From Owenia fusiformis (taxonomy: Eukaryota; Annelida; Polychaeta; Sabellida; Oweniidae), in NCBI GenBank assembly GCA_903813345.2, contig CAIIXF020000010.1:12343181-12407180 (forward strand): a stretch of 64,000 nt of DNA, read 5' to 3'. The notes beneath the pieces are model-generated. The model was not told the DNA's origin and did not search any database. It was given only the letters and a program-made list of their open reading frames with translations. The position numbers and the translations under genes were made by a program. Below, piece by piece: positions 18,401-53,600 of the stretch (positions are counted from its first letter, which is position 1; each line of letters begins with the position of its first letter).

Positions 18401-21400
18401 CTGAAATATTCATAAGTATGATTTAATTGTATCTCAGAGTGGAATCAAATTATTTGTGGAACTCTGAGACATAATTCCCACACTTTTACTAAGAGATTGG
18501 TAACAAAACATAAAATATTAAATTGAATAGTTAATGAAGTGTTTCATTGAAGCCCTATTTTAAAGACATGAAAAAAAATTTATGACCTAAAGGTTGCGAT
18601 AGGTTAGGTCGACGCCAGCAAATAATTCTGATGAACAGAAAATATTTAAATGGTCTTATTTACATGAATATGTAATAGTTGTTTGCGTGTTAAACATTCA
18701 CCGAGCAAATAGAACATAAAAGATATACGTATAAAGCCGTATTGTTATGACACGAAATGCAAGACAACATAAGAACCAAAATGAAAGAAAGAGATTTCCA
18801 TTGTACACAATAAGGTCTAAAATAAACATCTCTTGCTACATAGAACTCATTGAAGTAAAAGGAAATACCACCTTGATAATTCTACCAAATTATTATCTTA
18901 AAATAAATCTTTTTGAGTTGAGACAAGAAATAAATTGATGTATTCTGTGGAGTTTTAGAGTTTAGTTCCTATAATGTTCAGATACTGTAAATGTGGGAAC
19001 TGGGATATAGATAAAAAAGGACATATCTTAACATCAGGGTCTTCATTGTATCCATACCATTGGGGTAAAACCTGTTCTTTCTTCCAATGGAAGGTAACGA
19101 GTGTGATATACATTTAGTTGTCTTAGCGCTTCTTGGTGTATTCTTCTATGGGGAACGCTTTTAAATTATTTTTGCATTCTTTTTTCCACATAATTCTTAC
19201 ATCTTCTTACATTATTTTCAACACTGCAAAATATCTCGTACGAAATCATCTTAAAGATGCGAAATCACTAAAAGAACATATTTTCAGTGAAACATTTTGC
19301 AAGGGTCAAGATGACAAAGCATCAATTTTTATCTGTAGAGTCGTTGTCACCTTGACAACCAACGAATGATCTTGGGTGAGTTATTGGTTGTATGACCATA
19401 ACTGGTATGACCACACCTTGCCCAGATATATGTGGATATTTTCCTAAAACTGTCAAGAACAGCTTTGAAAAATCATCAAAGGACACATACGAGATTTATA
19501 GTTGTTTTTGTGTTTTTTATAGTTGATACGGCGACGATACGTGACAAAAGTAATACTAAAGTATGACATTCTAAGTCGGTCAAAACATTTTTCACAAAAT
19601 AAAGAAACTATTCAGTCTGTTCAGAAATTCAAATTCAATTTGATCTTTTCGGTGCCCTAATTTTACTCTCTATGTAAAAAACAAATGTCATTAACTTCAT
19701 TTCGACTTTTCTTAGCTACGCCCAACGATAATTTTGAAAGGAGAGTATAAAGTGAAAAATAGATATAGACTTTTGTAAAAAATCATATTTACAGAAGATG
19801 CAGACTGACTGAATAAAACCAAGTCATTGATAAAGAACATTCGGTTGTGAAGTTGGAGAAGTAGGATGCACAAACTTCCCAGAAGTCATCTGGATTGGTG
19901 TAGGCCAATTAAGTGTATCTCTTTCATATATGTGCTTCTCTGCACTGGAGTGATCTAAGATGCCTTCTTTCATTGTTGTGGTACATGAATGATAATAAAT
20001 TATTTGGCGTAGTTTTTCACTACACGTGCACGGGAATATTGTATTATGGCTCTCATTTTCTTCGTATGTCTTGTTTCTTAACATTATAGATGAAAATCTG
20101 ATGGGCTTTATGTCCTGTGAGCGTCGTACATTTCGGCATTTGGGGCATGTTTTGTAAGTGGCCATAAAATCGTGACAATTACAGATAGAAAATTGAGGAT
20201 TGGTAGAGTAGAAGGAAAAAACATTGAACAAGGTTTAATTGTGCTAAAAATGACGTTAAACCAATGCTTAGTTATTGACATACATTTGTTTTGGTTACCT
20301 TTTTTGGCTCACCCTCAACTATCTTAATGTTGGGGCGGCCACAATTTTTTCCATTTCACAAACGTTTCGGTGTTAAACTTTTGATAGTTACTATATGTGA
20401 TGGAAACGTCTTGGTTTTTAGTGTATGTTGCTATGTTGTAATCTTTGTAAATTGTGAATCATAATTAACATGCTTACGAGAAACTGATTATAAGAATTAT
20501 ATGTCTAGACAGCATAGAGTGCTTTTGCAGTTGTTCTAAAGACCTCCTTTTAATAAGGTTTCACCTCCTATCACAACTGATTTCAATACTTTGAACGATT
20601 ATATAGACACTCTTTGATTTATTTTACTGAGCAAAACATCTAAAAACATCAATGTACAGATTCACTTCGTAATACTGTGGTAAAGTTAAAATTTATGTTA
20701 TTTTTTAATTTAAATAAACCATCTCCAATTTACATCCCATGCCTTATAAGGCGATCTATTTATGTAAGTGATCAATCATTGTCACTTACCATGACATACC
20801 ACAGGCCTTCTGTTTGAGTGAGTTTAGGACCAACTCCAAAATAACTAACATGCTCACATAATATCTAGAAGCTTTAGAAGCCAGACGATTATCACACATA
20901 GGTGTGTTAATGTTCAAGGTAAAACATAATATGTGCCCTTCATATATCAGAGATATTTTTAGACTTTTGACACCTGTACCAATAGGAATAGAGTTAAGGG
21001 ATAGGCCAACCTATCACATCCCATTACATATTTCTACCAGGTTCAAGGATAGTGGAGCTATCCTTTTTTCTAAAATTTGGGACTCCTTACCATTACAGCT
21101 CAGGCAGGTGCCTACTATCTCTTCTTTCAAAGGGCAAATCAAAAAGCACTTCCAAAATTTTCAAAATATTCAGACAAATTCACAAAATTTATCTCTTCCC
21201 CGTAATTTAGAAATCAAACTGAACCAATTACGTGTTGGCCTCTTGTTAAATGCACATAAAATGGCCCACTCTTTTACAACTATCGATTCTGATGTATGTA
21301 GATGTGGTTTAAAACAAACCACAAAGCATTTCCTCTTACACTGTCGCCTCAACAATGATATAAGACACCAAATGCTTGACAGGCTAAATGGATTATTTAC

Positions 21401-24400
21401 CATGCATGACATAAATTTCTCCTTTAACAATTTAAAACAAGATGATAAAATTGAAACTCTTTTGTATGGAATTAACTTTTTAAATATTGAAACAAATAGA
21501 GAAGTTTTGTCTAAGTACCTTTATTAATGAATCTATCAAACTTGTTGAATAAGATCATGCTACCTATTCTTTTCACCTACTCCAACCAAACTACCAACCA
21601 ACCACTAGCAGCCCATTTTTGTATTGTCAAAATCTGTCTATTTTTGTATAATTTTATTGTAGTGTGTTTATATGTATAGTTGCCAATAATGTTTGCTTCG
21701 GCAACTTTTTGAAAAATCTTTGTAAAAAAAATTACTATGATAATAAAAAAAAACAAAAAAACAACATAATATCTCTTAAGGATAAAATAAAGAACTTATA
21801 TAAAACAAAATTATAAAGTAGTCAGTTGATCAATATAAACAAGGAAGTTTAAGCCTTTGTAACAATACTCCCTCTTTGGGGTCGTAGCCACTGTAGCCTC
21901 TAAATATGATTTATATTTGATTTCAATGAAAAAACGTACACGCTTTACCACTGGGAAGCAACATACACTCGCCTCCAAAAGTTTGGCTGGCAACCTTAGC
22001 TCCCTCACTGCACCACTCTTTATGTTTGAATTCTTATTTACATAACCTGCGAGGAAAATACTCAAAAATTTGGATTGAAAGGGTGAGGGAAGTTAGTGCA
22101 ACAGATTTTTGACAGGTGATAATTTTTTGGCAAGTAGTTTCTGGCTGTAAAAAATAAATGCATATGAAAGAGCAATGCATAATCTTCAAGAAAAGTTCAA
22201 AGAAAGATTCCAAGATCAATTGGATTATCTCATAATTCGTGTTTAATCCACCCACTAACAACTTTTTTTCAAAATAAAATCGTTATTTTCACCATCATCC
22301 ATCAATTTTTTACAATTTTTCATTCAAAATTACATTGTGCTTGAACAAATGTTTCATCACACAAAATATGTAAATCATTCCATAAAGGGATTTAAATTTG
22401 TTTTGTTTTTTTCGAAAAAAAACAATTTTTAAAAATGCATGTTTACAGAAATAATTTAGAAGTGATGCAAAAGATGGCAATGTTTTTCAATAACATAAAT
22501 AGTTTGGTGATTTACTCATGTGTGCTGTGTTTTAATCTCTGCATTCACTGACTAAGTTAGCCTATTGACACTGTGGCTAGTCGATCAATGTGGATGCAGT
22601 CATGTATATGCAATGTTTCGTGAGTTCTCGCGTACATTATAGTGAATGGGGTCGTTGAAAAAATATGACAGAAAATCGAGGTAAGTGATCTCAGAGTTTC
22701 TACTTAACATATTGACTTGAAATCTTGCATACATATTCAATATACATAGTATGACAATGTGTGAAAGTTTCAGCTAGCATATTCCTGTTATAGGGAAGAT
22801 ATTTGAACAAAATTTCGTAAACGTCAACATATATGTATCAAATGGATTCAACTATGTATCATTTGGATTCAGAACGGTAACAAATGGATGCTATAATAAA
22901 TTATGCTTTTATCATGATGATTTATTTACAGATGGACAACTGGCCAGATTTTCCTTGTATCCATTGTTCGGATAAACATTCCTTATTCAGTGAAGTAATT
23001 AGCCACACCATTACAATACACCCTCATGAAGAATTGAAAATTGATAGACTTTATATAGACCCGTCATCTGGAAAATGCCATTACAGAAGGAACAACTATG
23101 GTTTCATACCTAATACTGTTAATTTGAAAAACGGGTCCATAACATGTAATGATGACAATGAAGATGTTGAAATTAGGTACGCCAATCAAGTGAATTCAGA
23201 GCCCAAGAACCATCAACCCACTGAAATACCCACAGATCAAGTTTCAGAGCCATTAACATTCCTTGAAAGTGACAATGAGCAGCCAACAGATGGACCATCT
23301 GTAAATCTTGGTGATTTTGTCAGCTCAGCTGAAAGAGCCTACAGATTCCTTGAAACAAATTACCCAAATTCAAGAATTATATCATCTATTTACAATTTTT
23401 TGAAATCGTGGTAAGTGGAATCTTTCCAATTACCAATATAGGATTATTATTGTTTTTGGACACTGTGGACTATTTCACCGCTCCATGTGCCAAACAAGTA
23501 AGATACAGAAAGGAAACTAAATACTTTTGGTTCATGGGCTTTCGTCTGTTTCATGGGAAGTTTCTGAGGTAAGACTTCATTCATTTTTACTTTTAATTCT
23601 TATGATAATAAAATAAAACTAGACTTTGGAAATTGAACAAGTTCAATTTCAGACTCCAGATCTAGACTTTTTTAAGCCCAGTCATCCAGAAAAAGCCGAG
23701 TCATCCAGAATAAGCCGAGTCATCCAGAATAAACTGAGTCATCCAGAAAAAGATGGATGGATGGATGGATGAAATAGGAAGGAGGGAATATTCGAAGAAT
23801 TTCGAAGAATATAATTAAAGTGTAGTGTCAGAATCGAAAAAATGAGGAAAAGCTTTGAATTTGACCTAGATTTTGACCTAGGCCCTGGACTGGACTTGGA
23901 CCTAAACTTGACTTGGACCTAGACAAACACTGGACTTGGACCTGGACTGGACCTTGACTTGAACCTGGAAATGGACTGGAAAGGTATTTTTTCAATTTTT
24001 TTCACTTTTCTTGACTTTCTATAAGGTTATCATCAGATCGATTTTTCTCGAAATTTCAAAGCGCCATAACTTCCGAACCGGAAGTCGGATCGAAATTTAG
24101 TTTGCAGATTTGGATTCCTGAGAAAATTCCATCCTTAATTCATAACTCATACGTTGAATTTGGAGAACTTTTTATTTTGACCTACTTTTCGGACGCCATA
24201 TCTCAAAAGTTGGTCAAAATACTTTCTGACGGCAAAAGGCTAACACTATTAGCACACTCTTGGCTACATGTATACACCATTTCGAAGAACATAATTATAG
24301 TGTAGTGTCAGAATCGCAAAAATAAGGAAAAACTTTGAATTTGACCTAGATTTTGACCTAGGCATTTTGGTGTCCAAATTTTGAGCTAGATGGCTTTTGA

Positions 24401-33400: not shown

Positions 33401-36400
33401 TTAGGCTAAATGTATCAAACCTAGTACATTAAACCACACTCAAATCATTGAGAAATGGGCTTAAATCCTTTCTTAAAGCATTATATAAATATATCTATAA
33501 TATATCTAAATGCCAGATCTTATCCAGAATATGCACAGTCACTACGATTTAAAGAAAACCATTGGATATTGAGAAGAAACTGCGTGACCTGGGAAAGAAT
33601 CATCCCTCTAAGCAGGTATCCAGAATCCGTACCTCCTTCTTCCCCCTGCTATAGCCAATTTGGAAGCGCCCGATTAAACTGAATCACGTGATCTTATTAT
33701 GTGCAATGACTTATACATGATTTCTGTCGCAGTGTTGCGACAGCCAATCATATTGCAAGTTCTTATATAATCGGGGAAACTGCTTATCGCAGGGGGTAAA
33801 AAGAAAGAATATATTCTGGATTTTGAAGCCCTGTGATCGGAGGATGGCAAAGAATAAGCAGCAGGAATGATTTTGGAGAATCAACATACCCGGTGGTTTT
33901 TGGCACATAAATTTCTTCCTCACATTACAGGCTGAAGTTCTCCATTTGAAGCCCGCCATAGCCACGACCTCGACACATGTGTTTCCTGGATCGCTGGAAG
34001 TACATTGGGATTGTATTGACACTATGAATACAAATAAAATCCAATACATCGATTTAATTAAAAGCTATTCTCAAATATCTGAAGAGGCAGAAGCACATAA
34101 TATAATTCCGAAAGCAAATTTCAAATGCATGCAAAACTTACACGTTCTTAGGCATCCCGTCATCCCAGTTTGTTATAGTAATTGGTGATCCGTCAACCCA
34201 GATGTATGTACCAGGAAACCCGTTCTATGAAATGAAGATGTTTATTGGCAACATGATACAAGCAAGCTAATGTAATTTCATACACCAGAGCCAGAGTATC
34301 AATGCTCTAAACCATGTAGGATAGTTCATAATTAAATTAAAACTATGTTCCTTTTAATTACTTTTTATATAATAATTATATCATATGTAACTGTCTTGTT
34401 TTAGAGTCAAATAATACATATATACATACAATATATTTTAAAGACGGACTAGATGGCTCTGTCTTCAACTTTCAAATAAAAACGTACCGTATCTGACAGT
34501 CCAATCCAGAGGCTTGACGATATCTCCTGACATGTTACGCTGTCAGTTAAAATCTGTAATTTATCCGGGGTATCCACTATCAAGAGATTCCCATCATATC
34601 CACTGCACGTGTCTTGGGCATCAGAAAATGTCGCTGTATCCGTGAAAAACTTGTAACATCTGTCACCGAAACCATGCCAACCGTCCTCCAAGTCGCACCT
34701 GTCGATGTATTCTGTGGACATAACAATATACGTTATAATTCTTGTAAAGGGTCGCTACGTACCAAAATAATGGGCATCATCGCAAATTTTTTATTTTGGA
34801 AAGTATTATCCAAATTGACTGTAAATGCCTTGGGGCATTGATTTTTAAATTCTAAGTCATCCACAATGGGTAAAGTCGATCAATATGATAAAATATACGA
34901 TTCAAAAATGAACAAAATGAACAGTTCTTCAAACTCCAAAGGTTTCGAAGCTTAAGGTGCAGTGGTATTTAACAAGAAATGACAAAACAGGAAGTGACAA
35001 TACCATGCTTGATTTCAAACGTTTTTTGAAACAAGATAATAGAGTTCTGTTTTGACCTCCAGTCAATTTAACTAGTTGCACATATCATTTACATGACCAG
35101 GATCACAATGTTCATGGTCAGAATGACCCCAAACATGATGAAATAACTTTTTAAGCCCTCTAAAAATGTGACCGAAAAATAGCTAAAAGTAGGCGGTTAG
35201 GAAAGGTCACTGAACAGAATCAAAAACATTTTTGAAATCAAGCATGGCATTGTCACTTCCTGTTTTAGTCATTTCCTGTTAAGTTCTACTGCACCTTAAC
35301 ATATTCTATTTCCGATGAACCAATTACCACTGACTCGATGCGTAGTTTTGCATTCTAAAATCAAATCTATCCTTTCGATGTCATTTTTGTGAACAATTGA
35401 TTCTACCATAAAGTGTTATATACCATCCAGATAAGAGTCCCAAAAGCTTAGTCTCATTTCATAGTCGTAATTTTATTCATGTAAAGGACATCTACCTTTA
35501 TGGTTAAGGACAACTGACAACGTTTGGATGATCTTTATTGGATATGAAACATCCCCAAACCACAGTTTGGTAACAGTAAATTTCAATTGGACGACATGAT
35601 ACGATGTCTTAATTTCGTTCCTTATTGCATGACAAAAATTATTTTTATCGCCTAACAGAGAGAGTGAGACTGTGATACATAACGATGCAAATGGGGATTT
35701 CAGTCAAACTTATGGAGGGGAGTTTGTCGCAAAACAAATCTATAACAGATAAAGGCTGAGGAATCGATAAATTAAACAAAGAGTTATTCTGAACAAGAAA
35801 ACAGGACTTTATCTAAAACGCCATGAAGTACCCTAATATCATTGACAATCGGTACACATTTCTTTTTAAACTAGATAACATTATCATATGAGATGCCTCT
35901 TAGTCTACTTATCTCGTTTTTACAGTTAACACACTTTTAATGACATTTATCAAACCTACTGTATGTTTTGTCCTTATTGGTACAAGCTAGAGCTTTTGTT
36001 ATCTGACATAATTTCTACACTACATTTCTTTTTGCATTATGTTCTGAGACTTCTTGTACTTGGATATTGAATATTGTGTCAATTTTTAGGTATACATAGC
36101 CTACATTTCACTTGTGTTTGTGTTTTCAAATGCCGCCAAATTACTTGTACAATACACGATGCGTAAAAAGTATCAACTGGCATGGGATTTTGAGTAAATG
36201 CGTATTACCTGTTGGTCTCTTGCATATGTAGCGAAGGTTCGCAGTGCAACCAATGTCGTTCCAATCGCCATTGGTGCGGGCCATGGCACAATGTTCCTTA
36301 TCGTTCCAGTTATCCGGCTGACCCTTCGCCCAAGATGCCTTTCTGAAGATGAAATAAAAATAGGTAACAAAATATAAGATATATTCATTTTTTGTTTAAT

Positions 36401-39642: not shown

Positions 39643-39754
39643 TTAATAATTCTCTTCACCAAGGTCGTACATGTCATACACATCCTCATTCGAGTAGTCA
39701 TCCGCGGTTATAGTTGTAGACTTAGGGGTTGTAGGTGCAGCAGCTGTTGTTGTC
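39643..39754 (-). other. Gene B terminal exon
   Basis: It encodes TTTAAAPTTPKSTTITADDY, then an acidic Tyr-bearing tail ending DLGEENY and a TAA stop. The Thr/Pro start matches the opening of the acidic A spacers, so this exon is probably a shortened spacer. Confidence 0.8.
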
Positions 39755-42700
39755 CTGAAATTGACAAGGGACCACAATTTAAGATCGTTGATGTATGAAC
39801 AACTGAAAGTGCTCAAAAATGCTGGACACTTTCAGTGAAACTAATCTATTGAACTGTGTACCGTCTGGTGAACTGTCTCAAGAAAATGAACAATAAAAAC
39901 TAAATAAATGTAATATTTTCGGTAATATAAGAAGCCATTTTCATGACACTTCAAAGCAATAACGTTGATAAACAAATAACAAAAACAAGAATGAGTTTTG
40001 TTTGGCGATATTACATAATGCTACATAATATATTTCTAAGTACAAATTGAAATAAATGATTATACCATAACTAATTGACTAACTACCTAAAGATTATATA
40101 ATAAGTGTATATGTAGTTATGTAATTCAAAAAACTTCCTCTGATTTTGAAATGTAGCTATGAATTCTGAGAAAACAAATCTCTGCTTTTGGTTAATCAAC
40201 AACATGCTACTAAATGCTTAGTTACGACAATTCCAAAATAGACCGACGTTAGTTCTTTTTTAACTTACCTCGGTTCATAACTACAACACTTTTTGAAGCT
40301 GAAGAAACAAATCCTCTTTGCGAATGGTCCAACTCTCTTTAGTCTCTTCAAGAAGCCAAATGCATCACTCTTGCAGACTGCTATCCCGTTGGTATTCTTC
40401 TTTCTGGCCTGCATGCGTCCTGCTCTACAACATTTTCTCTTCAGAAGAGGTATTTCTGTAATATAAATTGTTGTTCATTGATTGAAAGACCTGAATAGTA
40501 TTGCATTGTAGATTTACATAGGATACTGTACACAATAGATTCTATGGGTGGCAATTGTGTTTCAACCAGTGATTATTTGCTCTATCAGATATTTCTTGAT
40601 TGTAATTTATCAGAAATTATCATTATATCAGTGTGTGTCAGACTCGACATTATGTCCTATTATGAATTATTGTCATTTCTTGATTAATTGTATCATTCTT
40701 TCAAAATCTTACTTTTTCCTTTACGTCTACGATGTTGTTCTTTCTTATGTTCACGTCCCGTGTCTTTCTGTATTCTCTCTTCTTCCTGTTCGTCATCTGT
40801 GTCATCAGCTTCCAGCTCAGCAACACTTTCCTTTTCTGCCTGCTCTATATCGGCATCACTGATCTCACCTCCGGAGAACTCTATTTCAGAGATTTCATTG
40901 GCAACTTCCTCTAAATCTTCTTCCTGATTAAAAGAAAATGCAACTGTCTACACGGGCTTTAATTAACAAAAGGACTTTTCAAATTGAATAATCTGAATGA
41001 TATGTAATGCTTGAAGAACTGTTGTTGTCTAGTTCATTGAATGCAATTCTTCCTTGGTGGTAATGATGATTATATTATTCACATATAGGTATTTTATATC
41101 AATACACCTTACCTCTGTGGTAGTCTTGTACATTGCCGTTGTGGTAGTGGCTGGTTTAATTGTTGTTGTCGGTAGTCTGTAAAAATAAAATTCAACCATT
41201 TTATTCATGATTCACTATAAGAAGGTTGCCCAGAAACATTACGTGATAAGATATGGTTAAATAATTTGCAATAGTTAGCCTGAAAATCGTTAATTTCAAC
41301 ATTGCAAACAAATTCCCAAATGATGATTTTCTTATCACTAATATGCCAAGTTTATATCATTTTAGTGATTCTTTACATTTATCGGGAAGAAGTTCTAAGT
41401 TTTTTTTAAATAGGATAGAAGGGCCCAAAATTTACAAATGGATAAATAATATTCATGCATCATTTTGGTGATAAAAAACATTATCGAGTTCAAAATAATA
41501 AAGCTTACCTTGGAGGAGAAATTTTGCTGCAGCATTTATTGAATGATACGAAACAGATTCTCTTGGCAATTCCTGCCAACTTTCTGAACTTCATGACAAA
41601 ATGGTTGGCTCTGTTCCTACACACTTCAGTCCTCTTGCTCTTCTTTGCAATGATGAATCCTGCTCTGCAGCAGTAATGCTTCAATACCATTGCTGAAATG
41701 AATATGATTATATAAAGTTGATTTAATCGGAGTGATGGAATATGAATTTTTAGGGAAATGTGATATTGGCCAAGGAGAGTATCATATTACCATGCGCGCA
41801 GAGTCTAGTCATAAACTACGAAGACGAAGCTCTCTTTTAAGAAGTGAAGTCGAACGAATGCAAAGGGTAGTATCATATCAATAGGGCGACAGGATTTTGA
41901 CTTGAATATCAATTCTATTTTCTGCTTATTTCCAAGGAGAACACGTTATTATGGAATGGATACAGTTATATCGTGTCATATTTCCTCACCACCTGAAAGA
42001 TGTTATAATTTTAATTGCGTTATAAGTATTCAACCAAACCTTAATGTTTTAACATGAACCTTTCCAATAAGCAACTTATTAATAAGTAAAGGTTTTTTGA
42101 TTTTTTAAAGCTGACCCTACTCACCTCTCCCTCTTCCTCTTGGGTGGTTTTTATGTTTTCGTATTATGCCTTTTGGTTTCTTCACTTCCTTACTAGAGTC
42201 AACATCATCACTGTCACCATAAGTGGCCCCAACACTCTCATTAAGTTCATCAACTGTGTCATCTTCCGCTTCTTTTAGATCATCTATCGTTAGTTCATCC
42301 TCGGAGAATTCTAGTTCAGCAATTCCACCCATAACAATGTCAATGGAATTATATAATTCTTCCTTGGAGCCTGATAAGGATATTTCTGATGAGGATTCTG
42401 ATGTCGTAGCAGTTGAAGGCATATGAGTAGGAGATGAAGTAGGTGTTGTTGTCCTGAAATTGTCAAGGAATCACTTTAAAAGTGAAAATAGTTGAAACGT
42501 TAACCGAAACGACTCGGGAAATTCTGATACATAGCTAAATGCATTGGTTCACTGAAAGAGTGACCTATTGTACAAGACCAGGCTGAGCAAAGGTACTCTA
42601 ACTAAGTAAGATAGATTTCAATACGTTTTCCAACATGTAGAGGTTTAAAATTGACACGATTGTGTCGTTTTTCTGTTTGCTATTTATGTTGTTTCCTAAA

Positions 42701-45700
42701 CTGGGAAATAGTATTCACACATCATTTGGGTGACCTAAAACTGATAATTAAATATAAAATATCAAAGCTTACTTTGGAGGTGACATTTTACTGCAGCATT
42801 TATTGAATGATATGAAACAAATTCTCCTGGCCATTCCTGCCAACCTTCTGAATTTCATGACAAAATGTTTGGCTCTGTTCCTGCATACTGCGGTTTTGTT
42901 GCTTATCTTTGCTATGATGAATCCTGCTCTACAGCAGAAATTCTTCAATATCTTTGCTGAAATAAACATAAATGTATATAATTATACTGTGTCATATTTC
43001 ATTACCATTTGAAACGTATTACTATTGTTTATAATTGCATTATAAGTCATCAGTTGTTGTTTCTGATTTGTCGATCTTACACTAAATGTTTTAACATGAC
43101 CTTTTCGAATAAGTAGCTTATTGATTTTCTTTTGATCTTTTAAAGTTGATCCTGCTCACCTCTTCCCCTTCCTCTGTATCTTGGGTGGTTTTTATGTTTT
43201 TGTCTCATGCCCGATGGTTTCTTCATGTCCTCAACGAGGTCATCTTCATCGCTGTCAATATCAGTGATCTCGACACTCTCATCAAGTTCATCAACGGTGT
43301 CGTCTTCCGCTTCTTTTAGATCATCTATTGTTAGTTCATCCTCGGAGAATTCTAGTTCATTAATTTCATTCATCACTATGTCAATGGAATTATCTAGTTC
43401 TTCGTTAGAGGCTGATAAGGATATCTCTGGGGAGGATTCTGATGTGGTTCTAGTTGTAGGATTATGGGTAGAAGTTGTAGTAGCTGTTGTTGTCCTGAAA
43501 TTGTCAAGGAAGCACTTTAAGAGTGAAGATATTTGATACATGAAGAACTGAAGCGACTCAAAAAATGCTGATACATAGTTCAATACGCAGGTCATACTGA
43601 AAGTTCGAACTATTTCAAACAGTTGAACAATGAAAACTGAATAAGGAGCTTGACTTTAAAAATATTAGTAGATCCATATTTCCTCAAATTAGATCTGGGG
43701 TCAATTTTTACACTGTACCTAACAATTCTTAGAGAAAATCTCTGCTTTTAGTTCATAACTTTACACAATATCCTAAGTTACAACAATTCCAAAATTACAC
43801 CCACCTAGGTTCATAACTACAACATTTTTTGAAGCTCAAGAAACAAATCCTCTTTGCGAATGGTCCAACTCTCTTTAGTCTCTTCAAGAAGCCAAATGCA
43901 TCACTCTTACAGACTGCTATCTCGGTGATATTCTCTTTTCTAGCCTGCATGCGTCCTGCTCTACAACATTTTCTTTTCAGCATAGGTATTTCTGTAAAAC
44001 AAAATATTGTTCGTTTAGTGAGACCTATATTAAACACTATATTCTAGGATAATATCAGAAACAGTTAATATATGTTTCACTGACATGTACCTTTCAATCA
44101 CTGGGGATTTGTCATGCCATTAAACTTGCTTCCATTCCATCGTTTTTTTATTTTAATTCCCCCAAAATTATCACAACATTAATGTTTGTCTGTTCGACTG
44201 ACACTGTTATGTTAAATGCCATATTTTTAATTATTGTTATTTCTTGATTGAATTGTAATTCTTTCAAACACTTACTTTTTCCTTTACGTCCACAATGGTG
44301 TTCTTTCTTATGTTCACCATTAATTGGTCGTCTCGTATCTTTATGTATTTTTCTCTCTTCCTGATCAGCATCTGTGTCATCAGCTTCTAGCTCAGCAACA
44401 CTTTCCCTTTCTGCCTTCTCTATATCGGCATCACTTATCTCACCTCCGGAGAACTCTATTTCAGAGATTTCATTGGCAACTTCTTCTAAATCTTCTTCCT
44501 AATTAAAAGAAAATGAAACTGTCTAAATGGGCTTTAAAATTTGAAATGTATTTAAAAAAGGCTAATTCGAATTGTGTAATGCTAGAAGGACTGTTCGCTG
44601 AATACAATCCAACCTTGATGGTAATGATTGTAAAACTCATTTGTTCATACGTGAAATGAATTATAGTCTATCTTGTATCAATACACTTTACCTCTGTGGT
44701 AGTCTTGTAGATTGCAGTTGCTGTGTTTGATGGATTAACTGTCATTGTTGTAGGCCTGTGAAAAATAAAATGCAATAATTTTTATCTAAGATTAACTATA
44801 TTGTCGAGAAGCGTCTAGTTTATTGAGAGGCTTTACTTTACATATTACTACACATGATAACTAATGGTTAAATAATCTGTAATGATTAGCCTAATAATGG
44901 TAAAAATTTAACCTTACAAACAGCCTTTCCAAACTGAGAAATAAATTATATCATTTTAGTGACAAAAAATCATCATCAGATTTAAAATACCAAGTCTTAC
45001 TTTGGTGTTGAAATTTTGCTGCAGCATTTATTGAATGATACGAAACAGATTCTCTTGGCCATTCCTGTTAACCTTCGCAACTTCATGTCAAAACCTTTGG
45101 CTCTGTTCTTGCACACTACAGCTCTCTTGCTCTTCTTTGCTGTGATAAATCCTGCTCTGCAGCAGTAATGCTTCAATATCTTTGCTGAAATAAATATTAA
45201 TTAATGTAATTATATATATTATGTCATATTTCCAGAAACATGTTCTTATCGTTCATTTTAATTGCACTTTTTCTTACTCTTGTTTCTGATTTGTCAACTT
45301 ACACTTAAAATGCAACTTTTATTTTTTGATTTTTTTTAATTGAATCTCCTCACCCATTCCTCTTCCTCTTTGTCTTGGGTGGTTATTATGTTTTCGTATG
45401 ATGCCCTGTGGATTTTTCACTTCGTCACTGGAATCCTCATCATCGCTGTCACCATCAGTGACCTCAACACTCTCATCAAGTACATCAACTGTGTCATCTT
45501 CTGCTTCTTTTAAATCATCTATTGTTAGTTCATCCTCGGAGAATTCCAGTTCATCAATATCATCCACCACAACATCAATGGCATTATCAAGTTCTTCGCT
45601 GGAGCCTGATAAGGATATTTCTGATGAGGATTCTGATGTCTTAACAGTCGAGAGCATATGAGTTGGAGATGAAGTAGGTGTTGTTGTCCTGAAATTGTCC

Positions 45701-48700
45701 ATGAATCACTTTAAACGTAAAAATAATTGATACGTGAACTGAAACGACTCTGGAAATTTTGATACGTAGCTAAATGCATTGGTTCTACTGAAAGAGTAAC
45801 CTATTGTACAAGATCAGGCTGAGCAAAGGTACTCTAACTAGGTAAGATAGATTTCAATACTTTTTCCAACATATAGAAGTTTAAAATTGACACAATTGTT
45901 TCGTTTTGGTGTTTGCTATTTATGTTGTTTCCTAAACTGGGAAATAGTATTCACACATTATTTGGGTGACCTAAAACTGATAATTTAATATAAAATATCA
46001 AAGCTTACTTTGGAGGTGACATTTTACTGCAGCATTTATTGAATGATATGAAACAAATTCTCCTGGCCATTCCTGCCAACCTTCTGAACTTCATGACAAA
46101 ATGGTTGGCTCTGTTCCTGCATACTGCGGTTTTGTTGCTTATCTTTGCTATGATGAATCCTGCTCTACAGCAGAAATTCTTCAATATCTTTGCTGAAATA
46201 AACATAAATGTATATAATTATATTTTGTCATATTTCATCACCATTTGAAACGTATTACTATTGTTTATAATTGCATTATAAGTCTTCAGTTATTGTTTCT
46301 GATTTGTCGATCTTACACTTATTTTTTAACATGACCTTTACGAATAAGTAGCTTATTGATTAGTTTTTTTTATTTTTAAAGTTGATCCTGCTCACCTCTT
46401 CCCCTTCCTCTGTATCTTGGGTGGTTTTTATGTTTTTGTCTCATGCCCGATGGTTTCTTCATGTCCTCACTAAGGTCATCTTCATCGCTGTCAATATCAG
46501 TGATCTCGACACTCTCATCAAGCTCATCAACTGTGTCGTCTTCCGCTTCTTTTAGATCATCTATTGTTAGTTCATCCTCTGTGAATTCCAGTTCATCAAT
46601 TTCATTCATCACAATGTCAATGGAATTATCTAGTTCTTCGTTAGAGGCTGATAAGGATATGTCTGGTGAAGATTTTGATGTGGTTCTAGTTGTGGGCTTA
46701 TGGGTAGAAGGTGTAGTAGTTGTTGTTGTCCTGAAATTGTCAAGGAATCACTTTAAGAGTGAAGATATTTGATACATGAAGAACTGAAGCGACTCAAAAA
46801 ATGCTGATACATAGTTCAATAAACAGGTCCTACTGAAAGTTCGAACTATTTCGAACAGTTGAACAATGAAAACTGAATAAGGAGCTCGACTTTAAAAATA
46901 TAAGTATATCCATATTTAATCAAATTAGATCTTGGGTCGATTTCTTCACTGTAGCTAACAATCCTTAAAAAATATCTCTGCTTTTAGTTCATAACTTGAC
47001 ACTTTATCCTAATTTACAACAATTCCAAAATTAGACCCACCTAGGTTCATAACTACAACATTTTTTGAAGCTGAAGAAACAAATCCTCTTTGCGAATGGT
47101 CCAACTCTCTTTAGTCTCTTCAAGAAGCCAAATGCATCACTCTTACAGACTGCTATCTCGGTGGTATTCTCCTTTCTAGCCTGCATGCGTCCTGCTCTAC
47201 AACATTTTCTTTTCAGCATAGGTATTTCTGTAATACAAAATATTGTTCATTGAGTGAGACCTATGTTAAACACTATATTCTAGGATAAAATCAGAAACAG
47301 TTACTATACTTTCACTGATATGTATCTTTCAATCACTTTGGATTTGTTATGCCATTAAACTTGCTAATATTCCATCCTGTTTTTTTATTCTAATTCCTCC
47401 AAAATTATCACAACATTAATGCTTGTCTGTTCGACTGACACTGTTTGTTAAATGCCATATTTTTAATTATTGTTATTTCTTGATTGAATTGTAATTCTTT
47501 CAAACACTTACTTTTTCCTTTACGTCCACGATCGTGTTCTTTCTTATGTACACCCTTAATTGGTCGTCTCGTATCTTTCTGTATTTTTCTCTCTCCCTGT
47601 TCATCATCTGTGTCATCAGCTTCTAGCTCAGCAACACTTTCCCTTTCTGCCTTCTCTATATCGGCATCACTTATCTCACCTCCGGAGAACTCTATTTCAG
47701 AGATTTCATTGGCAACTTCTTCTAAATCTTCTTCCTAATTAAAAGAAAATGAAACTGTCTAAATGGGCTTTAACATTTGAAATGTATTTAAAAAAGGCTA
47801 ATTCAAATTTTGTAATGCTAGAAGGACTGTTCCACTCTAATTAATTCCTGTTGTTGTCTGGCTCGCTGAATACAATCCAACCTTGATGGTAATGATTGTA
47901 AAACTCATTTGTTCATAGGTGAAATGAATTATAGTATATCTTATATTAATACACTTTACCTCTGTGGTAGTCTTGTAGATTGCAGTTGCTGTGTTTGATG
48001 GATTAACTGTTACTGTTGTAGGCCTGTGAAAAATAATATGCAATTATTTTTATCTAAGATTTACTATGGTAAGATTGTCGAAAAGCGTTTAGTTTATTGA
48101 AAGCCTTTACTTTACATATAACTACACATGATAAGAAATGGTTAAGTAATCTGTAATGATTAGCCTAATAATGGTAAAAGTTTACCTTACAAACAACCTT
48201 TCCAAACTGAGAAATAAATTTCACTCCTCTCCATAAGTTTGGCAACCTTAGCTCCCCCATTGAAATTACTTATAAAAATTCAAACGTAAAGAGGCTTTAA
48301 CACGTAGTTCAATGGGGAAGCTAAGGTTGTCAAACTTATGGAGGGGAGTGTATATCATTTCAGTGACAAAAACTCATTATCAGATTTAAAATACCAAGGC
48401 TTACTTTGGTGGTGAAATTTTGCTGCAGCATTTATTGAATGATACGAAACAGATTCTCTTGGCCATTCCTGTTAACCTTCGCAACCTCATGTCAAAACCT
48501 TTGGCTCTGTTCTTGCACACTACAGTTCTCTTGCTCTTCTTTGCTGTGATAAATCCTGCTCTGCAGCAGTAATGCTTCAATATCTTTGCTGAAATAAATA
48601 TTAATGAATGTAATTATATAATGTCATATTTCCCAAAGCATGTTCTTATTGTTCATTTTAATTGCACTTTAAGTTTCTTACTCTTGTTTATGATTTGTCA

Positions 48701-51700
48701 AATTACACTTAAAATGCAACTTTTATTTTTTTAATTGAACCTGCTCACCCATTCCTCTTCCTCTGTGTCTTGGGTGGTGATTATGTTTTCGTCTCATGCC
48801 CTGTGCATTCTTCACCTCGTCACTGGAATAATCATCATCGCTGTCACCATCAGTGACCTCAACACTCTCATCAAGTTCATCAACTGTGGCATCTTCTGCT
48901 TCTTTTAAATCATCTATCGTTAGTTCATCCTCGGAGAATTCCAGTTCATCAATATCATCCACCACAACGTCAATGGCATTATCAAGTTCTTCGTCGGAGG
49001 TTGTTGATATTTCTAATGAGGATTCTGCTGATGATGACCTAGATGATGATCTGGATGTTAGTGAGTCTTCAGATTCTTTCGAGTGCTTGTCAGAACTCTC
49101 CTTTCTCCATCTAGTGTTAGTCATTTTGGCGTTAGCCTTCCATTCTTGTTTGGTGTCATTGAAGCAGTCATAACGATCCTCACCTGGACAGATGGATAAT
49201 TCAAAACACGTTCATGTGTATTCTGTTTGTAACATGAATATAGAAGCCTACTTTGAAAGTTGTTCCTTATTAGAAATACTTTTTGTCTTGTTCTAAAGTT
49301 TACAATTGATTTAGCCAGGGTGTTTAGTTAGGTATATTCTCTAGATAGCAAGCAAATACCACAACATACACATTACTTGGGTAAAACAATGGTTTACTGC
49401 GTATGGCTGTTCAAATGAGTTGTATATGTGTTAAATGTTTTACCTTCAAAGTCGCAGCATTTTTCAATTGCAATATTTAGGCTGGGCTTGATCCATCTTC
49501 CACTATTTGTAGGTAGTCCCTTCTCGCACATCATGTCTACTCTCCGTTCCTTTAGATCTTGGAAACAATCCAACCGTGCATCATCAGCCTACAACATCAT
49601 ATTAATGTCCATTAATGTTTTAAAATGAATTGTGTAATAGATTTTAAAAGATGAAATAAAATGACCGTTGTCCACTTATTACATACAATCAACAAGTCAG
49701 TCAGTCAGTACATACGTTTATATGTAAGCTTCTTTATCTTTAGTTATCACACCACATACCTGAGCACAACATTTTTTGGTAGCATTCAGATTTTCCTGAG
49801 CTATCTCGTCAATGTCTGTCCCTTCATCCCCATTTAACTTTGCCCAGAACTGTTCAATACGGTGCCACATGACTTTCCATCCCCATCGATTTAAGGTACC
49901 CATCTCTGTGTCACTTTCCTCTCTTATCTTTGAACACATGTGCTCCACTCTTTCACTCCAGTCTTTGCTTCTCTAAAATGAATATTATGTATATATGAAT
50001 AAAATGTCTATAATTATATCAAATCAATGAGCAGAAATAGTTTTTGAACCAGCCATCCATCAATGTCTTGCAAGATGCCTCATCAACATAATGACCACGT
50101 TGCTCAAATGTGTACAAAATACTTAATTTTCATAGGTTTACTTACATACATCAGACAAATTGATTATTATTTTGATATGTACCTCATGGTGTCTGTGTCC
50201 TTGTCTCATTCTTTGTCCCCTGTGTGGTTGCAATCTTCCCATATCTGGTTTAAAGACCCTTTTGACTGCCTGTATACCCCGTTCTATATTTCTCCTCATT
50301 CCACCAGGGTTGCTATTTCCAGTCCTTTTTATCGTACCCTTTGCATTGTCTAAATGTGTTTCAACTTTGTCAACCATTGCATCCTCATCATCATCCATGT
50401 CATAATGTGATTCCTCATCTTCAAGGCCAATCATTTCCTTTTCATCACTCTGTACATCTGGGTCGTTAACATCATCAGTCATCGGAGACGGTACAACATG
50501 ATTGACAGATTTCTCTGGTATTTTGGGCTCACCTGCGATATAAAATGCGTTGTGAATTTTTTCTTTCGACAAAATGTACCTTAGTTCCAGCAGTGAAGAA
50601 ATGATGTTTATAAATAATATTGATAGAAATGATGGACAAAGTTATTTGTATTAAAATCTGCATATTATATGATAGAGCATCTCTTTGAACACAATACAGA
50701 AATGACATTGCAAAGACATGGCAGATAATGGCGATGCATGAATTAAATCCTGGAGCCAAATTACTTCTCAGTTTAGAATTTCAATTATTTTATGGCCCGC
50801 TAGACCTTGTATAATTTTGAAAAGGATGAAGCTGTATAGATAAAATGTAGCTTAGATTGTGTAGAAAAAATAAATGTTCGATAAAGTATCGTATTATTTT
50901 TTACCTTGTATACATACTCTCTTTGTTAAATGGTCATCGTTGGCAATGTGACTGGTCTCATCGTCTGAGATAATAACAGCGCTGAAATCAAACATCATGG
51001 AGATTAATATTGTATTAGATCATATTCAGTGAAATTAGCATTATCTATTACTGATCGATGGATGGATCATAATAAATGGAGATAGCATACAACATATCAC
51101 ACTTAATGAAAATAATATTAACTAGAATTATCAATCTAAAAATATATGAAAATTAAAATTATTTTCTTATGAAATGTTTCATGAAAATATTGGGATTTGT
51201 ATATTTTTAATACCTTAATCTGACACATCCACATTCAGGAGTCGTCCATCTAATTGTTATTTTGGACATTGACTTTATATTATCACCTCGATTTGTAATC
51301 ATAAAAGGACATTCATCCAGTGCTTGGTACTTGTCATACGGCTTCTGGCGGAAATTGCCGAAACCACAAACTTCATCTTCGGACTCGGAGACAAGTCGAA
51401 ATTTCAGGAAAAACTTCTTTGGGTTAAGAGATCTAACAGCAACTAAAAATATACAATGTAAGTTAAGTACAAAATGTACATTTTTACATAAAGCTATAAT
51501 CCCTTTACACAAACATTATTATATCAAGTATATTTGATAAGATATAAGCATTATCACCGTCTTTAGTATTTTTGTCGTCATCATTACAGGTCATTCGAAT
51601 CTATCATGAAGCACAACAGTTTTTACTTTATTCATGATAATTCCCCGATTTGAAAGTCACCTATATCTGACAAAGAATATGGCAATCTGCTTTCTCATTT

Positions 51701-53600
51701 TTAATGAATTTGAACAGTGTTGCATTTTAAATCTTCAGTTTTCAATATATTATATGATTAGATTATCTCAATTCTGTTTTAATACCACAATCTAGTGCAA
51801 AGATATGTTTTCAACTTGTATAATCAATTCCCGTCATTTCATTGGCCTTATAAAGGAACTTTCAGAAGAAGAATCAGAATGACAGAAATGAACAAACCTT
51901 TAACATCCCGGACAATGACCTGGGTGCCATTTGAAACATTGTCCAAATAGGCAAACTGAATGACTTACCATTGTATTCTTTTGATGGCATGAGTTCTTCT
52001 CCAGGCTTTGTACCATAGATTATCAGGTCATACATGGGAGTATTAATTCTCCACAGTTTGTTTTCCTCGGGCTTCGAGTATTCTGGTACACGAGGGGGAC
52101 ATTGTGCAATTACTGGAATATAGAATATAGTTTATTAGTAAACTATTAGACGGTGTTGGGAAACAGTTGTTACACCACATTCCAATGCGGATCCGATTTC
52201 ACTAAACACTTAATGCATTTACAATACGATACTCGCTGTATAGTACGAGTTTTATGGAAGGTTCTTGATTCGAAGACATTGTTTATTTGAACAAGTGAAG
52301 AACGGTGCTTTCTACTTTGAAGTCACTTGTCATTACAGATAATTCATACACTACAAACAAAGATTACATGTACTTGGTGCTAAGCTATTTGTATAAGTTT
52401 ACTGATCTTGTATTGGCGAACTAACTAACGGATGCAACTAACGCCTGTCGATCGTCTACCAGATTAACTTCTATTTTATGGCCAACTCATTTAAATATGA
52501 ATGAAAAGTGGCAGGTACTATTTATATTTAAATGGGTAGGTTAATCCGGTAGCCGACAGGCGTTAGTTGCATTCGCGAATACAAGTTTAGGCCCTGCGTT
52601 GGGTGATTTCGACCAGGCAGAATCAGATATATTAGGGGATGACAAAATTGTAAGCAACACATGCAACTGGCCTACCAATCCATTCCTTATGAACTCAAAT
52701 ATAATATCTCCCAAAAGATCCGCGATATGCAATAAAGTTATCGACTCGGAGGATTCAAAGTGCAGTAGGGGAATAATAAAAATGTTAACCATTTAAAAAT
52801 CTTTAGTTTTCCTGAAATAAAGTATGAAATTTGGGATTTAAATATTAAACAATTGAAAGGATTTTCTGTTTTTTCTTCCTATACTTTGCTAGCTTTAAGT
52901 GCATAGATATTTTCAATGGAGAATGACATTAAATCTGAATCAAAATGTGAACTAAAATGCAAATTGCTATTTCTATGTGCTATAGTGATTCATTAAATGA
53001 TTTGTTGATATATTTTGTCGAGATTTCTTGCTAGACCCGAGATGGGGCGCTAACGTAATGTCAAAATTATGTTATCGATGTTATGGTTATTGGAAGAAGA
53101 GCGAAGCTGGCTAGATTTTACAATATCGAGTTATTATTTGCTCCCCCGAATTTTTGATCTCACTTTGATAAAACGAGAACATTAACTAAATTCGACTGAC
53201 GCCCCATCACAAATGGCATAAGACCAAAGAATTTCATAAAACACAGCAAGAAAAGAAACATTAAAGATGATAATCGGTTAAATGTAAAACAAACCCCAAA
53301 TATCCCAAAATACATATCCTTAGGTATGGAGAAACAACGGACATAATATTAATACTTCCATTCTCTACCATTCAGGAAACGTTATTACAATATAAACCAT
53401 TCGACCTTATATATTTAAAGAACAAACTAAAAAAAATATTCGATTTTTTTTTATCTTGCAGATACTGTTGTAGTAAACAAGATATAGTAGTCTTAGTTTC
53501 AAATGATGAACGGACAAACAAAATCCATAAGATACAGTGATTCAGTCTGCTTACCTTGCTGAATGACTATAAGACACACTGCCAAAGTTATGGACCCCAT
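39643..53600 (-). CDS. Gene B: Reeler plus tandem anaphylatoxin-like modules with acidic spacers, complete
   Basis: Exons: 53600-53555, 52112-51969, 51442-51214, 50981-50905, 50532-50183, 49972-49760, 49588-49444, 49183-48749, 48588-48405, 48023-47960, 47734-47512, 47227-47041, 46730-46396, 46192-46009, 45688-45354, 45184-45001, 44755-44692, 44498-44276, 43991-43805, 43494-43160, 42956-42773, 42453-42125, 41692-41509, 41176-41113, 40923-40713, 40455-40269, 39754-39643. All 27 exons join in frame to a TAA stop (1804 residues). The product is secreted. Residues 1-16 are a signal peptide, 16-165 Reeler-like, 166-282 acidic, 283-410 a degenerate Cys-pair region, and 411-1767 acidic spacers alternating with eight basic six-Cys modules; an acidic Tyr-bearing tail follows. 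Function is unknown. An immune peptide precursor or an extracellular/mineral matrix protein would both fit. I know of no described protein with this layout. Confidence 0.85.
40269..40455 (-). other. Gene B six-Cys module 8 (type 2)
   Basis: Reads LKRKCCRAGRMQARKKNTNG and ends CFFSFKKCCSYEPR. It is the last module before the terminal exon. Confidence 0.6.
41509..41692 (-). other. Gene B six-Cys module 7 (type 1)
   Basis: Reads HYCCRAGFIIAKKSKRTEVC and ends CFVSFNKCCSKISPPR. It combines features of modules 1 and 3, so it may be close to the ancestral type 1. Confidence 0.6.
42773..42956 (-). other. Gene B six-Cys module 6 (type 1)
   Basis: Reads NFCCRAGFIIAKISNKTAVC and ends CFISFNKCCSKMSPPK. 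It is the block 2 partner of module 3. Confidence 0.6.
43805..43991 (-). other. Gene B six-Cys module 5 (type 2)
   Basis: Reads LKRKCCRAGRMQARKENITE and ends CFLSFKKCCSYEPR. It is the block 2 partner of module 2, with two or so residue changes. Confidence 0.6.
45001..45184 (-). other. Gene B six-Cys module 4 (type 1)
   Basis: Reads HYCCRAGFITAKKSKRAVVC and ends CFVSFNKCCSKISTPK. It is the block 2 partner of module 1. Confidence 0.6.
46009..46192 (-). other. Gene B six-Cys module 3 (type 1)
   Basis: Reads NFCCRAGFIIAKISNKTAVC and ends CFISFNKCCSKMSPPK. Nearly identical to module 6 at 42773-42956. Confidence 0.6.
47041..47227 (-). other. Gene B six-Cys module 2 (type 2)
   Basis: Residues 704-765 start IPMLKRKCCRAGRMQARKEN and continue CKSDAFGFLKRLKRVGPFAK, ending CFFSFKKCC. 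The Cys pattern is that of type 1 with a two-residue longer first loop. Strongly basic. Confidence 0.6.
48222..48350. mobile_element. 129-bp MITE in a gene B intron, TA target
   Basis: The ends are CACTCCTCTCCATAAGTTTG and its near inverse, and most of the element folds back on itself. TA follows the right end, and the left TA reads TT. The matching intron of block 2 reads straight through the TA at 44947-44948 without it. The ends belong to the same family as those of the composite at 21966-31731. Confidence 0.85.
48405..48588 (-). other. Gene B six-Cys module 1 (type 1)
   Basis: Residues 547-607 read CCRAGFITAKKSKRTVVC, then a basic stretch, then CFVSFNKCC. The CC-xx-G, C, C-x6-CC spacing recalls the ANATO domain of complement C3a and fibulins, with longer inner loops. 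By my count it has about 18 Lys/Arg and one acidic residue. Confidence 0.6.
49109..49972 (-). other. Gene B Cys-pair region, two diverged copies
   Basis: Exons 6, 7 and the start of exon 8 encode two similar units. One runs HMCSKIREESDTEMG...NATKKCC then LDCFQDLKERR; the next MMCEKGLPTNSGRW...IAIEKCC then YDCFNDTKQEW. Both follow Cys, Trp, Lys-Cys-Cys, about eight residues, Asp-Cys-Phe. They may be an older relative of the six-Cys modules or a separate helical Cys domain. Confidence 0.6.
50183..50532 (-). other. Gene B acidic exon 5 with basic tail
   Basis: The exon encodes 117 residues: an acidic first half (including YDMDDDEDAMVDKVE) and a basic second half (GIQAVKRVFKPDMGRLQPHR, ending in His/Arg/Gln). 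The acidic-then-basic polarity foreshadows that of the repeated spacers downstream. Confidence 0.7.
50905..52112 (-). other. Gene B Reeler-like domain (exons 2-4)
   Basis: The order of features follows the reelin N-terminal (Reeler) fold: CPPRVP, MYDLIIYG, a KFFLKFRLVSE strand, VCGFGNF, a mid Cys (DECPFMITNRGD), then ITIRWTTPECGCVRLRSAVI. Reeler domains occur in invertebrate secreted defence proteins such as insect noduler/Hdd11 as well as in reelin and spondin. The N-terminal HG/GAP motif is weak, so the call rests mainly on the W..P..GCV..R ending and overall length (about 150 residues). Confidence 0.6.
52407..52585. mobile_element. Small TIR element in gene B intron 1
   Basis: CTTGTATTGGCGAA and GATGCAACTAACGCCTGTCG on the left recur inverted on the right (CGACAGGCGTTAGTTGCATT, then CGCGAATACAAG). 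Related words appear at 33000-33100 in gene A's large intron, so the family is dispersed. Confidence 0.6.
53555..53600 (-). other. Gene B exon 1: signal peptide
   Basis: It encodes MGSITLAVCLIVIQQ and then a phase-1 split at GTAAGC. The hydrophobic core continues into VIAQ of exon 2, with cleavage likely near there. Confidence 0.75.

What the first reader, a model, noticed from the sequence alone, without database searches (positions are those of the whole stretch)
39643..53600. Undescribed-looking polyprotein: Reeler plus eight anaphylatoxin-like modules separated by acidic spacers
Seen: 27 exons join in frame into one secreted protein in which a basic six-Cys module recurs eight times, each followed by an acidic spacer. 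Known: the CC-xx-G ... C-x6-CC arrangement is that of ANATO domains (C3a/C4a/C5a, fibulins), and Reeler domains occur in secreted invertebrate defence proteins. Inference: a precursor that carries many anaphylatoxin-like units, used in immunity or in an extracellular matrix. I recall no described protein with this layout.
Basis: partly seen in the sequence, partly recalled or inferred. Interest (0 to 1): 0.88.

Follow-up and report, generated by a model that had tools for sequence, protein, structure and literature searches.

The report
Worm protein of alternating charged modules
A tube-building sea worm carries a small family of related genes for secreted proteins in which short, positively charged, cysteine-locked blocks alternate with strongly negative stretches, and copies of the gene differ in how many blocks they hold; what the protein does is not yet known.

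Summary
On the minus strand, 27 exons (53600..39643) join in frame through 26 of 26 GT-AG introns into 1804 aa with eight basic six-Cys modules separated by acidic spacers. The genome is inferred to be that of the annelid Owenia fusiformis. It holds at least four such genes, with 2, 5, 8 and 8 modules; the other 8-module gene repeats all 27 exons. dN/dS against the three paralogues is 0.28-0.50.

The reading is partly supported. The Reeler domain passes Pfam's cut-off. An albumin/ECM1-like cysteine region was missed (below cut-off). The modules resemble ANATO domains at both ends of the cysteine pattern, but 0 of 22 scanned match Pfam ANATO, both inner loops are longer than I recall for ANATO, and fold comparison is inconclusive (one weak C5a row). 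Nothing shows immunity.

Best explanation: a secreted block-polyampholyte matrix or adhesive protein. Main rival: cationic defence modules masked by acidic pro-pieces. Three protein searches with limited reach found only P0001 of the same species.

The parts
53555..53600 (-). exon 1: start codon and signal-peptide-like stretch (MGSITLAVCLIVIQQ..)
   Evidence: counterparts in the three paralogues
51969..52112 (-). exon 2: end of signal-peptide-like stretch, start of Reeler domain
51214..51442 (-). exon 3: Reeler domain
   Evidence: PF02014, 27.2 bits on the joined exons, cut-off 21; 19.3 bits for this exon's piece alone
50905..50981 (-). exon 4: end of Reeler domain
50183..50532 (-). exon 5: acidic then basic linker
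49760..49972 (-). exon 6: region leading to the first CC of the albumin/ECM1-like part
   Evidence: PF00273 E=4.9e-6, 26.8 bits, below its cut-off 34.4
49444..49588 (-). exon 7: albumin/ECM1-like cysteine region; with exons 6 and 8 the pattern is CC-x9-C-x12-C-x22-CC-x9-C
48749..49183 (-). exon 8: last cysteine of the albumin-like region, Ser-rich acidic spacer, basic patch
48405..48588 (-). exon 9: module 1 (class A)
47960..48023 (-). exon 10: Thr-rich linker
47512..47734 (-). exon 11: acidic spacer with basic end
47041..47227 (-). exon 12: module 2 (class B)
46396..46730 (-). exon 13: Thr-rich and acidic spacer with basic end
46009..46192 (-). exon 14: module 3 (class A)
45354..45688 (-). 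exon 15: Thr-rich and acidic spacer with basic end
45001..45184 (-). exon 16: module 4 (class A)
44692..44755 (-). exon 17: Thr-rich linker
44276..44498 (-). exon 18: acidic spacer with basic end
43805..43991 (-). exon 19: module 5 (class B)
43160..43494 (-). exon 20: Thr-rich and acidic spacer with basic end
42773..42956 (-). exon 21: module 6 (class A)
42125..42453 (-). exon 22: Thr-rich and acidic spacer with basic end
41509..41692 (-). exon 23: module 7 (class A)
41113..41176 (-). exon 24: Thr-rich linker
40713..40923 (-). exon 25: acidic spacer with basic end
40269..40455 (-). exon 26: module 8 (class B)
39643..39754 (-). exon 27: Thr-rich then acidic tail ending in a stop codon
   Evidence: similar ending in P0001
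45354..48588 (-). first A-B-A repeat unit (exons 9-15)
   Evidence: compared with exons 16-22: six introns 92-96% identical
42125..45184 (-). second A-B-A repeat unit (exons 16-22)
   Evidence: its A-to-B part groups with that of the first unit of the same gene, support 0.991

Best explanation
A secreted, multi-domain block-polyampholyte protein of the annelid Owenia fusiformis. SHOWN by sequence: a signal-peptide-like N-terminus, a Reeler domain, an acidic/basic linker, an albumin/ECM1-like cysteine region, then eight copies of a basic six-Cys module, each preceded by an acidic, Ser/Thr-rich spacer that ends in a basic patch. INFERRED: the spacers are phosphorylated at S-x-E sites by a FAM20C-type kinase in the secretory pathway; acidic spacers of one chain pair with basic disulfide-locked modules of others, with Ca2+/Mg2+ bridging, so that chains condense in secretory granules and set into an extracellular matrix or adhesive (tube, mucus or cuticle), while the Reeler and albumin/ECM1-like part anchors or recruits partners. 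Module number is a tunable valency that changed by tandem doubling of an A-B-A unit, giving 2, 5 and 8 modules.
For: Gene architecture. Module cores carry net +10 to +13; the seven spacers, without their last 30 residues, -16 to -28; the 40-residue charge variance is 112, against a shuffle mean of 14 and maximum of 23 in 500. S-x-E motifs: 27 against a local-shuffle mean of 16.4, reached in 0 of 500; in P0001 25 against 12.9, reached in 1 of 500 (repeats within the protein are not independent). Modules number 2, 5, 8 and 8, with recent unit doublings. dN/dS against the most distant paralogue is 0.18 (A), 0.16 (B), 0.19 (Reeler) and 0.28 overall. By analogy, sabellariid tubeworm cement is made of oppositely charged proteins with phosphoserine, and FAM20C kinases are proposed for it (PMC12621633, abstract and passages seen); Owenia collaris lives in a tube with sediment grains and secreted ridges (PMC4375521, passages seen).
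Against: No expression, localisation or protein data. Tyr is low (1.4%), so a DOPA-type glue is unlikely. Structured disulfide modules are not typical of cement proteins (recalled). The Reeler domain also occurs in immune-induced proteins (PMC1939704, passages seen). Three protein searches found no relative in any other species, though their length and word limits are strict. S-x-E enrichment may follow from duplication of a few ancestral sites. Constraint is not uniform: dN/dS of the A modules is 0.61 against C10b and 0.96 between the two units of the window gene (dS only 0.014), and of the Thr linkers 0.74, 0.99 and 1.1 in three comparisons.
Confidence: 0.45

Rival explanations
1. A precursor of cationic antimicrobial or otherwise host-defence modules. 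Each acidic spacer acts as a pro-piece that neutralises the basic module until a trypsin- or dibasic-type protease frees it; the Reeler domain targets the precursor to microbes or is a defence domain itself.
For: Basic modules beside acidic spacers of similar charge; 28 dibasic pairs, overlapping ones counted, lie in the 35 residues before modules; a Reeler protein was in a subtracted cDNA library of the immune-challenged annelid Platynereis (PMC1939704, passages); C-type-lectin exons lie about 3 kb downstream and beyond.
Against: R-x-[K/R]-R occurs only inside modules, 4 sites; the looser R-x-x-R has 8 sites, 7 inside modules and one in the linker at residue 270, none at a module boundary. 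Spacers are conserved in order and charge. Neighbouring lectins prove nothing. No expression data.
Confidence: 0.25
2. A carrier of many anaphylatoxin-like signalling units, released on challenge and sensed by receptors on immune cells.
Confidence: 0.08
3. A calcium-binding, mineral- or chaeta-associated matrix protein in which acidic spacers bind Ca2+ and basic modules bind polysaccharide (chitin or sulfated glycans).
For: Acidic S-x-E-rich spacers and basic modules; an EF-hand gene lies in the same window but without shown relation.
Against: No mineral-related domain in the Pfam scans; oweniid tubes carry collected grains (sediment grains in PMC4375521 passages), and I recall no secreted carbonate.
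Confidence: 0.12
4. Not one gene: a chance chain of exons, or a decayed duplicate.
For: No transcript evidence; only P0001 was found among public proteins, so no listed annotation of this gene turned up within the lengths searched.
Against: Same 27 exons, phases and splice sites in a second gene, open throughout; purifying selection; public model of a shorter paralogue.
Confidence: 0.03

Closest known systems
P0001, unnamed protein of Owenia fusiformis (1044 aa), encoded on contig C11 of the same assembly
   Same: Signal-peptide-like start, region aligning to the window gene's Reeler exons, albumin/ECM1-like cysteines, one A and one B module, acidic spacers, similar C-terminal ending.
   Different: Two modules instead of eight; a longer acidic linker after the Reeler region; Pfam Reeler not reported for it at E<=1.
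ANATO domains (C3a/C4a/C5a, fibulins)
   Same: Six cysteines, CC-x2-G at the start and C-x6-CC with a Phe at the end (ANATO side recalled); helical in low-confidence models.
   Different: No Pfam ANATO match (0 of 22); intervals 15/17 and 21 are longer than I recall for ANATO; found in a different architecture.
Reeler-domain secreted proteins (insect defence proteins, reelin, spondins)
   Same: Reeler domain at the N-terminus.
   Different: Known ones, as I recall, lack the acidic/basic repeat and six-Cys modules.
Serum albumin / ECM1 cysteine-pair regions
   Same: CC-x9-C repeats; Pfam Serum_albumin E=4.9e-6 on exons 6-8, E=2.4e-5 in P0001; ECM1 E=0.045; serum albumin the only PDB sequence listed for the P0001 stretch, E=3.1, not significant.
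   Different: About one subdomain only; below Pfam's cut-off; part of a longer matrix-like protein.
Sabellariid tubeworm cement (Pc/Sa proteins)
   Same: Strongly acidic and strongly basic elements in a tube-building annelid; Ser in acidic context; FAM20C proposed there (PMC12621633, abstract and passages).
   Different: There the charges lie on separate proteins; here they alternate in one chain with disulfide modules. No sequence relation was tested or shown.

Membership tests
Reeler domain (PF02014) | Profile score above the curated cut-off | tested here: met
   27.2 bits, cut-off 21, on joined exons 1-4; the exon 3 piece alone 19.3. P0001 as a whole gave no Reeler hit at E<=1.
ANATO domain (PF01821) | Six cysteines with CC-x2-G at the start and C-x6-CC at the end | tested here: met
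   23 of 23 modules of the four loci; the ANATO form is recalled.
ANATO domain (PF01821) | Profile match | tested here: not met
   0 of 22 modules at E<=10 (the 23rd module spans two fetched pieces and was left out; HMMER's filters drop most matches above about 0.1). 0 matches in the whole genome at E<=0.001, where no control genome rang either.
ANATO domain (PF01821) | Spacing of the inner cysteines | tested here: not met
   CC-x15-C-x21-C (14 modules) or CC-x17-C-x21-C (9); a PROSITE-like pattern written from memory matches 0 of 23.
ANATO domain (PF01821) | Four-helix fold | tested here: inconclusive
Anaphylatoxin (C3a/C5a-type peptide) | Release by a convertase and an active C-terminal Arg | not testable with these tools
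   B modules end CCSYEPR before a Thr-rich run; no cleavage data.
Serum albumin / ECM1 family | Profile score above the curated cut-off | tested here: not met
   26.8 bits against 34.4; 24.6 in P0001, though the database's precomputed Pfam column lists PF00273 for P0001.
Serum albumin / ECM1 family | Paired CC with C about 9 residues later | tested here: met
   Cys 350/351-361 and 397/398-408; the family pattern is recalled.
Sabellariid-type phosphoserine cement | Secretion by tube glands, phosphoserine, coacervation | not tested
   Only S-x-E counts and charge blocks were computed.

The most novel reading that the evidence does not exclude
A gene family, so far seen only in Owenia, that strings up to eight anaphylatoxin-fold modules on one chain, outside complement, with acidic spacers that keep the cationic modules masked until cleavage, so that one secreted protein delivers a burst of C3a-like antimicrobial or signalling units; module dose evolved by repeated doubling of an A-B-A unit.
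Probability: 0.15. Interest if true: 0.85.

Novelty: new variant of a known kind. Interest (0 to 1): 0.55.

Why it matters
If the matrix reading is right, this is a single-chain block polyampholyte with defined disulfide modules and natural length variants (2, 5, 8, 8 modules) from an early-branching annelid line, a ready-made series for testing how valency sets condensation of underwater secretions. If the defence reading is right, it would be an array of cationic anaphylatoxin-like modules outside complement. Either way the module has no Pfam family match of substance, and the paralogue ladder shows exon-unit doubling at work, apparently twice in parallel or kept alike by gene conversion.

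Tried and rejected
Rejected: chance exon chain (a paralogue with the same 27 exons). Rejected as evidence: the Ribonuclease_P profile hits on basic modules (best E 0.00023, 6 of 22 members), which I take as composition; the weak HIV gp120 match to one module (E=1.1), chance.

Led nowhere: PDB sequence searches with modules (none; the chance match), with P0001 (two weak matches, E 0.16 and 1) and with the albumin-like alignment (none). Foldseek and VIA with the module model and Foldseek with the P0001 model (18 matches, best E 4.1) listed no ANATO or albumin structure; an unlisted family is not excluded. The alignment of P0001 with exon fragments misplaced several fragments, so P0001 was folded alone (mean pLDDT 43). 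NCBIfam gave nothing relevant. The albumin-region search and the module search returned P0001 only.

Left out of counts: the exon 5 counterpart in the C11 locus did not align end to end, so only 10 of 12 introns of my automatic C11 chain were GT-AG; that exon was dropped from the C11 dN/dS (12 exons compared). The C3 dN/dS used 19 exons, without exon 1, which I found later. Window exons 15-21 have no partner in C3, and 9-22 none in C11.

Papers: searches for Reeler with anaphylatoxin gave 0 papers; Reeler with annelid gave 2; serum albumin with annelid and others 0; Owenia with anaphylatoxin 1, whose only mention of Owenia is in its list of species. Owenia with tube and proteome or gland terms gave 16 and 23 papers, ANATO domain in invertebrates 5, cement terms 4; of these I saw listings only, except passages of PMC4375521, PMC8960428, PMC4224354 (one mention, a fibulin-2 ANATO gain) and PMC12621633.
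Full report
WHAT WAS CHECKED. The finding claims 27 exons that form one protein with a Reeler domain and eight six-Cys modules. I built the chain from the raw sequence on the minus strand. All 26 introns are GT-AG, the phases are continuous, and the joined sequence is 5415 nt with one terminal stop, 1804 aa, from 53600 to 39643. Eight modules fit CC-x15/17-C-x21-C-x6-CC. They fall in two classes: A (exons 9, 14, 16, 21, 23) and B (exons 12, 19, 26).

ORGANISM AND PARALOGUES. A protein search returned one hit, P0001, an unnamed 1044-aa protein of the annelid Owenia fusiformis, on a contig of 37,288,061 bases. The window's own genome has a contig of exactly this length (C11) that matches P0001 in ten places at 79-99% identity, the lower values in short or edge matches, so I infer that the window is Owenia fusiformis. 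The genome search found four such loci (it scored 44 of 76 candidates, so four is a lower bound): C11 with 2 modules (A B), C3 with 5 (A B A, A B), the window gene on C10 with 8 (A B A, A B A, A B), and a second C10 gene (C10b) about 455 kb away in the opposite orientation with 8 in the same order. The module numbers seen fit 2 + 3n. C10b repeats all 27 exons with 26 of 26 GT-AG introns and encodes 1806 aa with one terminal stop. C3 gave 19 exons with 18 of 18 GT-AG introns, and its first exon was found further upstream. C11 gave 10 of 12, the two misses flanking an exon that did not align to its ends.

SELECTION AND HISTORY. dN/dS of the window gene against C11, C10b and C3 is 0.28 (bootstrap 0.22-0.37, 669 codons), 0.38 (0.30-0.48, 1777 codons) and 0.50 (0.37-0.68, 1252 codons). 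Against C11, the lowest values are the 60-site Thr linker (0.15), modules B (0.16) and A (0.18) and the Reeler exons (0.19). Constraint is not uniform: A modules give 0.61 against C10b and 0.55 against C3; Thr linkers 0.74 and 0.99; exon 8 gives 0.86 against C3; and between the two units of the window gene A modules give 0.96 and the Thr linker 1.1, on very few changes. Within the window gene, the two A-B-A units have introns 92-96% identical. In a tree of nine A-to-B segments, the two inner units of the window gene group together (0.991), as do those of C10b (0.976), while the terminal units form their own clade next to C11 (1.000). So the second doubling happened separately in the two genes, or gene conversion has made the units alike; I cannot separate these. 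The acidic spacers of the two exon types are also related: P0001 residues from 702 to 788 or 793 match the other spacer type at 32-34% identity.

DOMAINS. Reeler: 27.2 bits on exons 1-4, above the cut-off of 21; P0001 as a whole gave no Reeler line at E<=1. Serum albumin was also the only PDB sequence listed for this stretch of P0001, at a non-significant E of 3.1, and a profile of three paralogues found none. I call it albumin/ECM1-like, not a member.

HOW IT PROBABLY WORKS. Shown: charge alternates in blocks. Module cores are +10 to +13; the seven spacers between modules, without their last 30 residues, are -16 to -28; those last 30 residues are +7 to +11; windowed charge variance is 112 against a shuffled mean of 14 and maximum of 23. 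S-x-E motifs exceed local shuffles (27 against 16.4, 0 of 500; P0001 25 against 12.9, 1 of 500). R-x-[K/R]-R sites occur only within modules. Inferred: secretion from the signal-like start, phosphorylation, inter-chain pairing and condensation into a matrix or adhesive. The comparison is sabellariid cement, where oppositely charged proteins, phosphoserine and FAM20C are reported (PMC12621633, abstract and passages). The main rival is a defence precursor with acidic pro-pieces; a Reeler protein was found in a cDNA library of another, immune-challenged annelid (PMC1939704, passages). I put the matrix or adhesive reading at 0.45 and the defence precursor at 0.25.

NOVELTY. Three protein searches returned only P0001. 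Their reach is limited: proteins of about 482-1535, 574-1827 and 992-3157 residues, shared 5-residue words, and in the first only the 7993 candidates sharing most words were scored (111 and 18 candidates in the others). Four paper searches for the layout found none. I rate it a new variant of a known kind: a modular secreted protein built from a known domain (Reeler), a distant albumin/ECM1-like region, and a module family that may be new or a strongly diverged ANATO.

LIMITS. No transcript, expression or protein data; organism inferred; function inferred; the ANATO profile search of the genome at a relaxed E-value did not complete (see Tried and rejected).

Noticed in passing
window 9574-10002, 34452-34754, 36141-36395 (minus strand): Pieces with C-type lectin domains above Pfam's cut-off lie downstream of the gene on the same strand; a further piece near 37.1 kb matches Lectin_C below the cut-off (17.5 against 22.6 bits); one at 33714-34064 that looked similar by eye has no Pfam match at E<=0.01. 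Probably one or more multi-CTLD genes.
   Followed up: partly
window 15755-16519 (plus strand): An open frame with EF-hand domains (EF-hand_7, 54.6 bits), by eye like a sarcoplasmic calcium-binding protein.
   Followed up: partly
window 4147-4500 (minus strand): An open frame with a PAN domain (44 bits).
   Followed up: no
window 48222-48350: Intron 9 holds a palindrome-like element of about 130 bases, read by eye; the counterpart intron 16 is shorter (245 against 381 bases). It looks like a small inverted-repeat transposon that came in after the unit doubling.
   Followed up: no
window 52430-52590: A second long inverted repeat by eye, in intron 1.
   Followed up: no
window 20862-21524 (plus strand): A 221-codon open frame that reads by eye like a piece of a retroelement; no Pfam match at E<=0.01.
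   Followed up: no
papers PMC8960428 and PMC11312191: The two papers disagree on annelid C3: one reports loss in representative annelids, the other lists C3 in Annelida with Owenia among the genomes screened.
   Followed up: partly
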